Part shown: piece by piece, positions 5,842 through 9,740 of the stretch
How the letters are laid out: each line of letters opens with the position of its first letter
Numbering within the stretch: position 1 is the stretch's first letter
Source of the DNA: Synechococcus sp. HJ21-Hayes
GTDB taxonomy: Bacteria; Cyanobacteriota; Cyanobacteriia; PCC-6307; Cyanobiaceae
Direction: 5' to 3'
NCBI RefSeq assembly: GCF_024345835.1
Contig: NZ_JAGQBW010000007.1
Span: 1-64,000, forward strand
DNA length: 64,000 nt
Notes under the pieces: generated by a model
Told to the model about the DNA's origin: nothing
What the model saw: only the letters and a program-made list of their open reading frames with translations
Database searches by the model: none
Program-made: the position numbers and the translations under genes

Positions 5842-5892
5842 GCTGCGCCTCGATACGCTCGATTCACGTTGCCACGCTGTGGGCTTGCAGGC

Positions 5893-6573
5893 ATGAACCA
5901 GGGAGCTGATCCAGCGGCCGGTGGCGCTCTGCCATCCCCTTACGAGCGCCTGGGAATCAGCCCGGACGCCAGCTTCGACGCTGTGCAACAGGCCAAGCGC
6001 GACCGGCTCTCTGAGTTGGGGGACGATCCCCAGGCCCGGGCCCGTGTGGAGGCCGCCTACGACGCGGTGCTGATGGACCGGCTGAAGGAGCGCCAGCAGG
6101 GCAAGGTGAGTTCAGCGGCCCTCAACGCCTCCCAGCGGGAAGCCACACGGCCGGCCCTGGCCAGCCCTCCCGTGCGGCCCAGTCTGCCGGCCATGCCATC
6201 GCTGCCCTCTCTGCCACGACCGAAGTTTTCGGTTCCGAGCCTGGAGCTGGCCATGGGCCGCGAGCGCTGGTTTCCCCTTGGGGTGGGTGCTGTGTTGGTG
6301 GCGTTGCTGCTGCTCACCCCCGCCACCTCCGCAGAGCTGTTGCTGGCCCTTGCCACGGTGATGACCGCCGTGAACCTGCAGCGGCGCAATGGCAAGTTCC
6401 TGTCGGCAGTGGGCTGGAGTTTCCTGCTGCTCAGCGTGGGCCTGGTGCTGGGGGGCCTGCTGGTGCGGGCCATAGATCCCTCCCTCCCCCTGGGCCTGCC
6501 CTTGGCCCCGTCTCAGGTACAGAGCTTGCCGCCCCTAGTGCTGCTGATCCTGGGGGCCCTGCTGCTCGCCTGA
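5893..6573 (+). CDS. CPP1-like membrane protein with J-like domain
   Basis: A 226-residue protein starting at ATG 5893. Residues about 15-70 form a J-domain-like segment (YERLGISPDASFDAVQQAKR) with no HPD tripeptide. A Pro-rich linker follows, then several hydrophobic helices from about residue 125 to the end. This is the architecture of the cyanobacterial/plastid CPP1 (chaperone-like protein of POR1, DUF3353) family, which in plants stabilises protochlorophyllide oxidoreductase. The role here is inferred from family membership. Its stop is one base from a decayed hslO tail on the opposite strand. Confidence 0.75.
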   Translation: MNQGADPAAGGALPSPYERLGISPDASFDAVQQAKRDRLSELGDDPQARARVEAAYDAVLMDRLKERQQGKVSSAALNASQREATRPALASPPVRPSLPAMPSLPSLPRPKFSVPSLELAMGRERWFPLGVGAVLVALLLLTPATSAELLLALATVMTAVNLQRRNGKFLSAVGWSFLLLSVGLVLGGLLVRAIDPSLPLGLPLAPSQVQSLPPLVLLILGALLLA

Positions 6574-6574
6574 G

Positions 6575-6685
6575 TTAGGCCCCCGCAGTGCTGAGTCCGT
6601 CAACCAGCTCCTGCAGTTTGTCACCATTCACTGCATGGATCTCATGGCAGGAATGGCGCTGCAGTAGCAAGATCCAGCGTGCCAT
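6575..6685 (-). pseudogene. Decayed duplicate of the hslO 3' end
   Basis: On the minus strand this reads 36 codons whose last 27 align without gaps to the last 27 codons of intact hslO (8820-8900). Both contain a C-[NH]-E-I motif and LQELVDGL or LQELIDEL before the stop, and the two stops align exactly. By my count 12 of 27 residues are identical, and roughly two thirds of the bases match over about 87 positions. The first cysteine of the CxxC zinc pair is replaced by Arg, and nothing upstream resembles hslO. I read it as a displaced, decaying 3' end left when the DNA between it and hslO was inserted. Confidence 0.7.
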
Positions 6686-7093
6686 GAGAGGTCTCACGAA
6701 TTGCCTCTGACTGGAGAACTAAACGTCGCCGAGTCCACCTGAGATCTTCAGGATTTCTGCGAACATCATTGCCTGGAGCGCTGGAGCGCTGGAGCGCTGG
6801 AGCGCTGGAGCGCTGGAGCGCTGGAGCGCTGGAGCCGTCAGGGGAGCGTAACCAGTCCTCGCCCTCACGGCCGTGGTGTTTCTGTTCTTGCTTGTCATCG
6901 CTCCACATTCCGGCAGTTCAGCTCACAAGATAGCGATTAGGACTTGCTTTTGGCAGGTGCCTAGGCGAGGGAAAACTTGCGATCAGAGGTATATCTGAGG
7001 CATTGTGAAGCTTTTTTGGTTCAGCCAAGGAGAATTCAGGCTTGCGGTCCAATCTCCTGTTTATGACATGTCGGCCCAACTCTCTTTCATTCA
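6686..7093. other. Non-coding stretch at the left end of the insert
   Basis: Apart from the octamer repeat array at 6773-6835 I see no gene here. A minus-strand open frame runs through the repeat, but it is an 8-residue translation of the repeat flanked by atypical sequence. From about 6900 the DNA becomes clearly more A/T-rich than the surrounding chromosome. It presumably contains the promoter of the gene at 7094, but I could not pick a convincing -35/-10 pair. Confidence 0.5.
6773..6835. repeat. Perfect 8-bp tandem repeat, about 7.9 copies
   Basis: The octamer CTGGAGCG is repeated seven times without error from 6773 to 6828, then seven more bases of an eighth copy follow. Each junction creates the self-complementary hexamer AGCGCT, so the array could form many alternative short hairpins. 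Because 8 is not a multiple of 3, unit gain or loss would shift any reading frame across it. It lies in the insert next to hslO. Confidence 0.95.
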
Positions 7094-7558
7094 GTGAAAG
7101 TTCTCCAAACCGCTATTCTGCTTGGATTGCTGGGAGCCCCAGCACCTCTCTTGGCGGCACCCACTGGCTCAGCTGACATCGAAGCAAAAGGAAGTGCGCC
7201 AACCTTTTGCAATATCAGCAACGATGGCGGTGTTGTTTCCATGTCGATCTCTCCCGAGGGAGACAGTCTCATTGGTGATGGAAAGTTTAGCTATGTTGCC
7301 AATGGCAACTCCAAGGTGGTTCTGAGTGCGGTCTCTCAGACGTCTCCCGAAAGAGCTGCTCCATCGTCGCCACGTATTGAACTGGCAGATCTCGTGGCCA
7401 ACAGTTCAGGTAGCTCAAGTGCTGACAGTAAGGAGTCGGGTGGTGTGATCAGAAAGGTCGGTGCCATTACTGCTTCAATTAAGCAGAATAATGCAGCGCG
7501 GCTCTTGACCGCAGGTGACTATGCCCTTCAAGCTACTGCGACCTGCACCTCTCTCTGA
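7094..7558 (+). CDS. Secreted Ser/Ala-rich hypothetical protein
   Basis: A 154-residue protein starting at GTG 7094. A clear signal peptide occupies roughly residues 1-21 (LLGLLGAPAPLLAA then APT). The mature part is rich in Ser, Ala, Gly and Val and has just two cysteines, one near the start (TFCNIS) and one near the C-terminus (ATCTSL). They could form one disulfide, as in small fimbrial or spore-coat-U-like beta proteins. I do not recognise the family. The next gene starts two bases after the stop, so they are probably co-transcribed. Base composition is more A/T-rich than in flanking genes. Confidence 0.6.
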   Translation: MKVLQTAILLGLLGAPAPLLAAPTGSADIEAKGSAPTFCNISNDGGVVSMSISPEGDSLIGDGKFSYVANGNSKVVLSAVSQTSPERAAPSSPRIELADLVANSSGSSSADSKESGGVIRKVGAITASIKQNNAARLLTAGDYALQATATCTSL

Positions 7559-7561
7559 TCG

Positions 7562-7987
7562 ATGAGGCTATTTCTTCTGCTATTAGCAGTTCTGTCGTCT
7601 GGGCATGCATATGCCCAGACTGCTTTTCTTGAGAAAAGAGAGTTCACTGCCAAGAGTGGCACGGTGCGGGTCAAGATGGCTGTCTCCCACACGCGCAAGA
7701 CCGCGGCCGAGCTCACGGTGCGATTGAAGGGGCCTGGAAAAGATGAGAGCACCCCTGGTGCAGTCCTAACTCAGGATGTGGTCATTGTACCAAGTCAGTT
7801 CAAGATACCGCCCAACAAGGTGAGGAGGCTGTCTATCAGCTTTCGTCCTGAACTTGCCACACGAACTCCCTATTTCGCATGCGTCCTTTATCAGCCGCCC
7901 GTCGAGCGAATGGACCGTGGACCGCAAGCTGGTGGATCTATGCTGTTGGCTACGGAATCATGTTCTCGTTTTTGGGTGGTCCCTTAG
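7562..7987 (+). CDS. Secreted protein with a PapD-like (Ig-fold) pattern
   Basis: A 141-residue protein starting at ATG 7562, with a signal peptide ending at a consensus AYAQ site near residue 19. The segment VIVPSQFKIPPNKVRRLSI near residues 78-96 resembles the pattern in N-terminal domains of periplasmic pilus chaperones (a beta strand, then 'P-x-x-x-x-I-x-P-x-x-x-x-x-x-x-I'). It is much shorter than a two-domain PapD chaperone, so it would be one Ig-like domain. Its 3' end overlaps the next gene by about 109 bases if that gene uses the ATG at 7879. The chaperone role is inference. Confidence 0.55.
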   Translation: MRLFLLLLAVLSSGHAYAQTAFLEKREFTAKSGTVRVKMAVSHTRKTAAELTVRLKGPGKDESTPGAVLTQDVVIVPSQFKIPPNKVRRLSISFRPELATRTPYFACVLYQPPVERMDRGPQAGGSMLLATESCSRFWVVP

Positions 7988-8367
7988 TGGCTGGAGAGCG
8001 GCTTGAGCTGGATAGCTTTTCTGCTTATCCTCCTCAACCAAAGATCGAGCTAGATCTCGATGATGGCAGCACGTGTGCTGTAACAGATCGCGCTCCGCCA
8101 ACGTTGGTGTTCTACGGTAAGCAGCTCAACAGCATTGATCAGCCGAGAGGAAGTGCGTTGGGAATGAAAAATGATTTCGGCGGCGGAGTCGCCCTTGTAA
8201 TTCCACTCGGTGGAACAGAATTCAAGCAAAAGTGTTCAGGCTTGCTGCAACTTCAAGAAGGTAGAGCCAAGATGGCCTTGGCAAATCAGATGCTTGAGGC
8301 AGGTCAGCTTACCGAGGCTGACATGAAGAAGCTTGTTGAAAGGATGCGCCTGGTTCTTGGAATCTAG
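7879..8367 (+). CDS. Exported protein with an IPLGG / Cys / helical-tail pattern
   Basis: A 162-residue protein. From ATG 7879 it has a basic n-region (SAARR) and a hydrophobic stretch (YAVGYGIMFSFLGG) that fit a signal peptide; a later in-frame ATG at 7960 would remove most of it. The mature part has a Cys in a STCAVTD context, a glycine-rich beta segment ending in ALVIPLGG, a second Cys (KCSGLL), then a charged helix. I have an impression of similar small envelope proteins in cyanobacteria but cannot name a family. It is the last of three co-directional secreted-protein genes. Confidence 0.55.
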   Translation: MRPLSAARRANGPWTASWWIYAVGYGIMFSFLGGPLVAGERLELDSFSAYPPQPKIELDLDDGSTCAVTDRAPPTLVFYGKQLNSIDQPRGSALGMKNDFGGGVALVIPLGGTEFKQKCSGLLQLQEGRAKMALANQMLEAGQLTEADMKKLVERMRLVLGI

Positions 8368-8642
8368 CTGCACTGATAGCAGGGTTGCCCTGGTTTCGTG
8401 GATAAGGCCCACTGCTGTTGACTTCTGCACTTCTGGGCGGGTGGCAGCCCTTCGGAAGGGCTCCAGTGGAGGCGTTCCAAAGGGAGCCGGATGACAGTGC
8501 AGTCCAGCACGACAAATCCATGGCTCCGCCGGGCTAGCTCCTTTGATAGCTCGTGAAGCCGACCTCGCCTGTTGTCCCAGCGGGTTCGCGGCGGCTCAAT
8601 CATCATCAGATCACCAAGCTGCAATTCAAGCGTTGGGTGCAT
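8364..8642 (-). CDS. Possible small SH3/KOW-like protein
   Basis: A 92-codon frame on the minus strand. Its first 60 residues look protein-like: LGDLMMIEPPRTRW, then RRGRLHEL, then a strand-like GFVVLDCTVIRLPLERL. That order resembles a small beta-barrel of KOW/SH3 type. The C-terminal third is compositionally odd and could be read-through. It converges with the secreted trio, overlapping its last codon. It may be a gene, a remnant or chance; I cannot decide from sequence. Confidence 0.3.
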   Translation of the reverse strand: MHPTLELQLGDLMMIEPPRTRWDNRRGRLHELSKELARRSHGFVVLDCTVIRLPLERLHWSPSEGLPPAQKCRSQQQWALSTKPGQPCYQCS

Positions 8643-8666
8643 GGAACTCGTGCATCACCACACCTG

Positions 8667-8735
8667 AAAGTCAGTGCAGCCAGTGCGGTAAGAGTACTGC
8701 GTGTCGTTGAACGCGGTGAAGAGATAACGGCAACT
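8667..8735 (+). pseudogene. Possible remnant of a Phd/YefM-type antitoxin
   Basis: This short frame reads VSAASAVRVLRVVERGEEI and two more residues, resembling the N-terminal signature of Phd/YefM antitoxins (an acidic helix then V-x-x-GEEI-x-x-T). There is no start codon nearby in a good context, no full-length antitoxin and no toxin gene next to it. Apart from this and the weak minus-strand frame, 8368-8819 holds nothing I recognise. The match may be chance. Confidence 0.18.
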
Positions 8736-8819
8736 GTTCTCTACGTGATCTGGTTGGCTTCTGCGCTCTTGGAGCTCTTTTTTTGCAACTGGCTGCCACA
8801 AGCTGTTGGTTGTGAGAAG

Positions 8820-9740
8820 TCAGGCGGTGACAGGATCTAGCTCATCAATCAGCTCTTGTAGCTCCTCGGCACCCACCTCATAGATCTCATTGCAGAAGTG
8901 GCAGGTGAGTTCCGCCTTGCCATCTTCCTGCAGGATGTCGCTGAGTTCGGTGCGGCCCAGCAGTTTGAGGGCGTTCACGCTGCGCTTGCGGCTGCAGGGG
9001 CAGTGGAAGTGCACTTCCTGCTGGGCCTCGGCATCCTCGAGCAGTTGGGGATCGAGGTCAGGAAATATATCTTCCAGCAGGGCTTGCAGGTTGCCCTCGC
9101 ATTCCGCCAGTCGTTGGCTGAAGCCGCTCACCTCGCGGCAGCGATCCTCCAGAAGAGCCACCAGGGCCGGTTCCCGGGCGGCCTTGGGCAGCACCTGCAC
9201 CAGCACCCCTCCGGCGTGACGTACACCGCTGCTATCGAGCTGTTCGCCCACAAACACGGCGGAGGGGGTCTGTTCGGAGTGCAGTAGGTAGGAGGCCACG
9301 TCCTCGCCGATGCCGCCGCTCACCAATTCCACCGTGGAGCTGAACGGTTCTCCTTCCCCTAGATCGCGCACTACGTGCAGGTAGCCGGTGCCGGCGGCCT
9401 GTTTGAAATCGAAGTGGGGGGTGCCATCGCTATCGCTCACCAAGTTGAGTTCGAGGCCCGGGTTGCCCACATAGCCGCGCACCCGGCCATCCCGGCCTGC
9501 ATCCACCATCAGGCCTCGCAGGGGGCCATCCGAGGCAATTCGCAGATTTACCCGGCCGTGGGTCACCTTCATCGAGCTGGCCAGCAGTAGGCCAGCCGTC
9601 ATCGCCCGCCCCAGCAGGGCGGTGGTGAGGAAGGAGAGCTGGTGGCGCTGGCGGGCGTAGCGCAGGCACGTGGTGGTGCTCACGGCCACCAGACGAATGC
9701 CGCCCCCGGCAGCGGTTGCGCGCACCAGTTGATCTCGCAT
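8820..9740 (-). CDS. hslO: Redox-regulated chaperone Hsp33
   Basis: Hsp33 is a cytosolic holdase activated by oxidative unfolding. The 306-residue protein starts at ATG 9740 and carries the C-terminal zinc/redox centre: a CxC pair (HCPC, near 247-249) and a CxxC pair (CHFC, 280-283). All four cysteines are present, so the redox switch should work. The gene is intact, but a degenerate second copy of its last 27 codons lies 2.2 kb away, beyond the insert. It begins 56 bases after the end of the upstream ABC ATPase gene on the same strand. Confidence 0.93.

What the first reader, a model, noticed from the sequence alone, without database searches (positions are those of the whole stretch)
6575..8822. 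Insert bounded by an intact hslO and a decayed copy of the hslO 3' end
Just after the CPP1-like gene, the minus strand carries 27 codons aligning without gaps to the C-terminus of hslO, with the same stop position; the real hslO ends 2.2 kb away. Between them lie A/T-rich sequence, an octamer repeat and three secreted-protein genes. This is what integration into the 3' end of a protein gene leaves when the incoming DNA supplies a new tail. Alternatives are a tandem duplication or recombination with foreign hslO-containing DNA.
Basis: partly seen in the sequence, partly recalled or inferred. Interest (0 to 1): 0.65.

Follow-up and report, generated by a model that had tools for sequence, protein, structure and literature searches.

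The report
Insertion scar at a gene's end
In a picocyanobacterium, a small block of foreign genes was inserted where two genes meet end to end, leaving a worn-out leftover of one gene's last 27 codons behind; several relatives carry different extra genes at the same spot.

Summary
Minus-strand 6658-6575 (84 nt with stop) aligns without gaps to the hslO 3' end (8903-8820): nhmmer E 1.7e-8, second-best place in the window after hslO itself. In relatives the CPP1-like gene and hslO are convergent neighbours, often 2-5 bp apart, and in four of them one unbroken alignment runs from CPP1 through the remnant. So the remnant is an hslO tail in its ancestral place and 6659-8819 is an insert: DUF1651 relic, octamer array, and a pilin-like/PapD-like gene trio whose middle gene occurs in 11 of 398 other genomes. 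Other relatives hold unrelated cargo at this junction: 8 of 81 loci exceed 800 bp (window included), against 1 of 234 for neighbouring pairs. None of those scanned has a tail remnant or a recognised integrase. Insertion is supported; site-specific integration is not; the present tail shows no sign of another origin than the rest of hslO. Best mechanism, inferred: recombination with DNA carrying hslO plus cargo, its far end joined inside the resident hslO tail. A scar of a known kind; recurrence at this junction is the more useful result.

The parts
5869..6573 (+). CPP1-like gene (Pfam PF11833; longest ORF given, true start not settled), convergent ancestral neighbour of hslO
   Evidence: Pfam E 1e-43; next to hslO in relatives
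6575..6658 (-). decayed hslO 3' end (27 codons plus stop), 1 bp from the CPP1 stop
   Evidence: continuous CPP1-to-remnant alignment to four relatives (one of them also)
6659..7093 (.). left spacer of the insert, 54.5% G+C; holds the octamer array and a DUF1651 relic
6773..6835 (.). tandem array, 7.9 copies of CTGGAGCG
6835..6905 (-). fragment related to the start of a DUF1651 gene of relative G064
   Evidence: DNA 56/74 to L249, whose ORF is DUF1651 at E 2.7e-10; the window fragment itself gives no significant Pfam hit
7094..7558 (+). trio gene 1, FimA-like (pilin-like) fold predicted
   Evidence: AlphaFold pLDDT 70.6; Foldseek E 5.5e-4 to 5nkt, the only hit under 0.001
7562..7987 (+). trio gene 2, single-domain PapD-like fold predicted
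   Evidence: AlphaFold pLDDT 80.8; Foldseek E about 2e-5 to pilus chaperones, but eukaryotic PapD-like/MSP domains score the same; Pfam PapD_N only 0.15
7879..8367 (+). trio gene 3, unknown; overlaps the end of gene 2
   Evidence: found with genes 1 and 2 elsewhere
8368..8819 (.). right spacer, no recognisable gene; one 24-bp match in 299 other family genomes (two candidates scored per genome)
8820..9740 (-). intact hslO (Hsp33, PF01430); tail 8903-8820
   Evidence: Pfam E 2.3e-84

Best explanation
A composite piece of foreign DNA entered the convergent CPP1/hslO junction of an ancestor of this strain. Shown: the remnant is an hslO tail still in the ancestral position beside CPP1, and what lies between it and the intact hslO is additional. 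Inferred: the incoming molecule carried hslO (or its end) joined to cargo. It recombined with the resident hslO by homology on the hslO side, and its other end was joined inside the resident hslO tail, at the CxxC codon. Either a non-homologous join (homology-facilitated illegitimate recombination) or a single crossover of a circle would do. hslO stayed whole; the resident last 27 codons were cut off beside CPP1 and have decayed without constraint.
For: Ancestral adjacency of CPP1 and hslO. In G165, G209, G134 and G449 one unbroken alignment covers CPP1 and the remnant up to window 6657. Homology stops abruptly at the CxxC codon. The remnant's 7 changes not seen in 18 genus tails fall at codon positions 1 (5) and 2 (2), as expected after loss of constraint. 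At 9 tail sites where the window differs from G443, the remnant has the genus consensus at 8, so it does not look like a recent copy of the window's tail. The insert is composite: the trio also occurs in other places and its fourfold-site difference from G443 is 0.33-0.41, against 0.11-0.23 for four core genes. Seven further loci of the 81, plus G455, have more than 800 bp here. Pfam families Competence (PF03772) and DNA_processg_A (PF02481) are in the genome, though 10-11 of 14 control genomes have them too. PMC3240628 (passages) reports both HFIR and single-crossover integration leaving a duplicated gene end.
Against: No junction sequence identifies the mechanism, and no donor with hslO next to this cargo was found. 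Left-side and right-side trees are poorly resolved around the window and show no foreign side. The remnant plus window-tail clade is not rejected (p-AU 0.39). At the 10 tail sites where window and G443 together differ from the genus consensus, the remnant has their state at 5, the consensus at 3, another base at 2, so its branching point is not fixed. None of the other inserts scanned carries such a remnant.
Confidence: 0.55

Rival explanations
1. Site-specific integration: a recombinase-bearing element integrated at an att site in the hslO 3' end, supplied a new tail, and later lost its recombinase.
For: The topology (whole gene, cargo, truncated gene end) is that of att duplication. Integration at protein-gene 3' ends is known, e.g. 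SGI1 at trmE (PMC8409611, abstract and passages).
Against: No integrase in the insert or among the ORFs of other inserts that were scanned. No tRNA in the window. The longest shared run is 8 nt. Other inserts scanned lack a tail remnant.
Confidence: 0.12
2. Local duplication of the hslO end (tandem or by slippage) came first, and cargo was captured later between the copies.
For: It needs no donor. The AU test does not reject remnant plus window tail as a clade.
Against: The remnant is 45/69 identical to its own tail but 48/69 to the G200 and G134 tails. No second copy of the CPP1 3' end lies beside the intact hslO, although the two genes abut in the ancestral state, so a duplication would have to end almost exactly at the 2-5 bp spacer.
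Confidence: 0.2
3. The CPP1 side is the foreign one: incoming DNA brought cargo, a foreign hslO tail and part of CPP1, recombining through CPP1/prfC, and the native hslO stayed.
For: The topology is the same. The remnant is not closest to the window's own tail. CPP1 and prfC were not found in the draft of sister G443, so that side cannot be checked.
Against: The prfC-side tree places the window near the same relatives (L033, L040) as the hslO-side tree does after G443, though both are poorly resolved there.
Confidence: 0.1

Closest known systems
Homology-facilitated illegitimate recombination and single-crossover gene-end duplication (PMC3240628, passages read)
   Same: Kilobase-sized insert, truncated gene end left beside it, one side in a homologous gene; DNA-uptake families present in the genome.
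   Different: Natural, undated event; no donor, no microhomology and no accompanying deletion could be shown.
SGI1-type islands at the 3' end of trmE (PMC8409611, abstract and passages read)
   Same: Cargo at the 3' end of a conserved protein gene that stays whole.
   Different: No integrase, no att repeat; the insert is only 2.2 kb.
Tycheposons (PMC10872708, passages read)
   Same: Cargo at a recurrent chromosomal place in aquatic bacteria; the paper says they were found in Prochlorococcus and other taxa.
   Different: No tRNA gene, no tyrosine recombinase.

Membership tests
Integrase-driven genomic island | recombinase gene in or beside the element | tested here: not met
   Pfam, NCBIfam and PHROGs scans of insert ORFs: none
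Integrase-driven genomic island | identical direct repeat (att core) at both ends | tested here: not met
   42/58 with a longest run of 8 nt; a decayed repeat cannot be excluded
Tycheposon | tRNA at the border and tyrosine recombinase | tested here: not met
   no tRNA in the 64-kb window; no recombinase in the insert
HFIR product | homologous recombination on one side | tested here: inconclusive
   hslO is whole; no mosaic breakpoint seen against G443
HFIR product | non-homologous or microhomology join on the other side | tested here: inconclusive
   abrupt end of homology at 6658; donor sequence unknown
Transposon/IS insertion | transposase and terminal inverted repeats | tested here: not met
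   no transposase hit in insert ORFs; no inverted pair framing the insert among the 25 of 33 listed
Tandem duplication | second copy is closest to its own source | tested here: inconclusive
   45/69 own, 48/69 others; p-AU 0.39
Recurrent flexible-gene site | unrelated cargo at one junction in several relatives | tested here: met
   8 of 81 loci over 800 bp, window included, against 1 of 234 for five neighbouring pairs; contents

The most novel reading that the evidence does not exclude
The convergent CPP1/hslO junction is a standing gene-capture site of this picocyanobacterial family that works without any recombinase. Incoming strands that carry hslO recombine through it, and the remnant here is a visible scar of how cargo gets in while hslO is kept whole.
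Probability: 0.35. Interest if true: 0.5.

Novelty: new member of a known kind. Interest (0 to 1): 0.33.

Why it matters
How small gene blocks without their own recombinase enter bacterial chromosomes is seldom visible afterwards (my own judgement, not searched). Here the ancestral junction is known to within a few bases, a scar of one entry remains, and several relatives hold other cargo at the same place, so the entry mechanism could be tested by sequencing close strains.

Tried and rejected
Looked for a CPP1 3' end beside the intact hslO, as a duplication or foreign hslO-CPP1 DNA would leave: none. One weak CPP1-profile hit in L031 (E 1.5e-5) lies in a hydrophobic stretch of an ORF overlapping the glycosyltransferase gene and was set aside as chance.

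Looked for tail remnants beside other inserts or wide gaps (L031, L049, L160, L178, L192, L081, L244, L242, L148, L199, L034, L043-L045, L240, L241, L243): none. The remaining loci with short gaps were not scanned.

Placed the remnant on a tree: it joins L178 at 87/75, which I do not trust with 75 filled columns. Five rows (L083, L160, L172, L176, L177) have absurd branches, probably out of register in that ungapped alignment. My first remnant-to-tail count was out of register by two codons and was redone. L200 had no motif match and was dropped from the tail comparison, leaving 83 of 84.

Trio gene 2 in viral contigs, plasmids and phages: no match. Whole insert in own genome: only this copy. 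Usher PF00577: 0 of 15 genomes, with E. coli ringing as control. PMC7522525: passages searched, nothing on islets. Literature listings: hslO with integration site or genomic island (10 of 660 listed, none holding the word hslO) and Vulcanococcus, hslO, CPP1 and related words (8 of 11 listed) showed no earlier report; titles and abstract starts only were seen.
Full report
WHERE. The window is G000:C37:1-64000 of a 2.94-Mb, 39-contig genome. Its genus group g1 includes genomes whose contigs have the same lengths as records titled Vulcanococcus sp. (G177, G209) and Synechococcaceae bacterium isolate RE-23may17-332, CANHMF01 (G443) (titles, lengths). These names rest on equal contig lengths only. 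G443 is the nearest genome seen: 93% DNA identity from hslO onward.

THE OBSERVATION. Minus-strand 6658-6575 and 8903-8820 are both 84 nt long, end in a stop and align without gaps. Against 83 hslO tails the remnant scores 40.0 mean identities of 66, behind hslO itself (47.6) and well ahead of every other place on both strands of the window (at most 32.1). nhmmer gives E 1.7e-8, with homology from the CxxC codon to near the stop and none upstream of it.

ANCESTRAL STATE. In relatives the order is prfC, small ORF, CPP1-like, then hslO in the opposite direction, ABC gene, and so on. In the genus, 25 genomes were searched, the window's own included; both gene ends are in reach in 22 (the gaps of G218, 56 bp, and G455, about 1,013 bp, I computed from coordinates). 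The gap is 2-72 bp in 12 (2-5 bp in 7), 161-302 bp in 6 and 839-6,626 bp in 4: G451 839, G455 about 1,013, the window 2,246, G227 6,626. In the other 3 the pair is not in reach. In G443 hslO is followed by a choice-of-anchor I gene and the contig edge, and two DNA searches did not find CPP1 or prfC (40 of 196 and 12 of 117 candidates were scored). G452's contig ends inside CPP1, and G454 (62% complete) gave only weak matches. In the window the remnant's stop is 1 bp from the CPP1 stop. In G165, G209, G134 and G449 a single alignment runs from CPP1 through to window 6657 (for G449), which is what an hslO tail in its original place must show.

IS THE SITE SPECIAL? I fetched neighbourhoods for 20 hslO places, then 60 more, taken down the similarity ranking of 225 matching genomes, plus a few more. 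Among 81 loci with both matches, the distance between CPP1 and hslO matches exceeds 800 bp in 8, the window included. For five neighbouring gene pairs in the same loci it does so in 1 of 234. Measured stop to stop, one of the 8 (L148) is 669 bp. Loci are not all independent genomes (G137 gives two), and the control pairs are not convergent, so this is a local control only. Cargo differs each time: orange carotenoid protein, FRP, a fatty-acid-desaturase-family protein, an RNA methyltransferase-domain protein, a glycosyltransferase and an HlyD protein in G227; glycosyltransferases and a Nif11 peptide in G137; class-I aldolase and a ligand-gated-channel-domain protein in G081, a heavy-metal-associated domain protein in G127; a VIT-family protein in G250; SnoaL-like in G451 and an unassigned ORF in G455. 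None of the scanned ORFs is an integrase, and none of these loci has a tail remnant.

THE INSERT. It is composite. Left spacer: a 74-column match to a DUF1651 gene of G064 beside the octamer array. Middle: three ORFs that occur together elsewhere. 12 of 399 genomes of the order, the window's own included, encode gene 2. In 10 of the 11 others genes 1 and 3 match beside it; in G422 they match only in small part. G455, not in that sample, has one whole trio and one cut by a contig end. In none of the other 90 loci of my hslO/CPP1 set does a trio gene match. Right spacer: one 24-bp match in 299 other genomes, two candidates scored per genome. G443 holds the trio on another contig, matching only window 7005-8367 at 84%. 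Fourfold-degenerate sites of the trio differ by 0.33-0.41 between the two genomes, while hslO, ABC, p10546 and rsmE differ by 0.11-0.23. The two copies are therefore probably not inherited from the common ancestor, unless these genes mutate faster. Predicted folds: gene 1 FimA-like, gene 2 PapD-like.

ORIGIN OF REMNANT AND TAIL. The present hslO, tail included, groups with G443 (100/100; 60/69 in the tail), so there is no sign that the present tail comes from another lineage than the body. The remnant is 45/69 identical to the window's tail, 48/69 to those of G200 (L041) and G134 (L032) and 46/69 to G227's. A decayed recent copy of the present tail should be closest to it. At the sites where window and G443 share a state against the genus consensus the picture is mixed: the remnant has the pair's state at 5 of 10, the consensus at 3, another base at 2. 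Where window and G443 differ it has the consensus at 8 of 9. Its 7 changes absent from 18 genus tails lie at codon positions 1 and 2. I read this as an hslO tail that left the lineage on the stem of window plus G443 or near their split. The AU test on so few columns rejects nothing (p 0.39-0.47), and prfC-side and hslO-side trees agree as far as they are resolved.

MECHANISM. Shown: displaced ancestral tail, insert, recurrence of the site. Inferred: recombination with DNA carrying hslO and cargo, with the far join inside the resident tail. PMC3240628 (passages) describes both outcomes: homology on one side with a non-homologous join on the other, and single crossovers that duplicate a gene end. 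The genome encodes members of the Competence and DNA_processg_A families, which many control genomes also have, so this makes uptake possible and no more. Site-specific integration has the right topology but no recombinase, no kept repeat and no tail remnant in the other inserts scanned. Local duplication is possible but would have to end almost exactly at a 2-5 bp spacer.

VERDICT. A real insertion scar of a known kind. The useful part is that this convergent junction is entered repeatedly.

Noticed in passing
window 7094-8367; L067-L076, L246, L247: The three-gene unit pairs a FimA-like predicted fold (Foldseek 5.5e-4, model pLDDT 70.6) with a single-domain PapD-like predicted fold, while no usher (PF00577) was found in 15 genomes, trio carriers and others. 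It may be a chaperone-pilin cassette without usher in cyanobacteria.
   Followed up: partly
window 7879-7987: Gene 3's long ORF overlaps the end of gene 2 by 109 nt in another frame, and the match to G443, G082, G047, G227 and G143 begins at its first residue; the true start is unclear.
   Followed up: no
L031 2387-9245: G227 carries an orange carotenoid protein, FRP and a fatty-acid-desaturase-family gene between CPP1 and hslO.
   Followed up: partly
L067 8644-9075 and 2301-3622: In G443 the trio copy lies beside an ORF that weakly resembles an IS3 transposase (E 0.015), on a contig with a tRNA-Ala followed by a possible integrase fragment (weak Int_N hit, E 0.23).
   Followed up: partly
window 6773-6835: A perfect array of 7.9 copies of the octamer CTGGAGCG directly abuts the DUF1651 relic; G436 has a degenerate similar stretch.
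   Followed up: partly
L098: Record CALPNT020000012 is titled Bifidobacterium breve but carries an hslO 77% identical to this picocyanobacterial one, so its label is doubtful.
   Followed up: no
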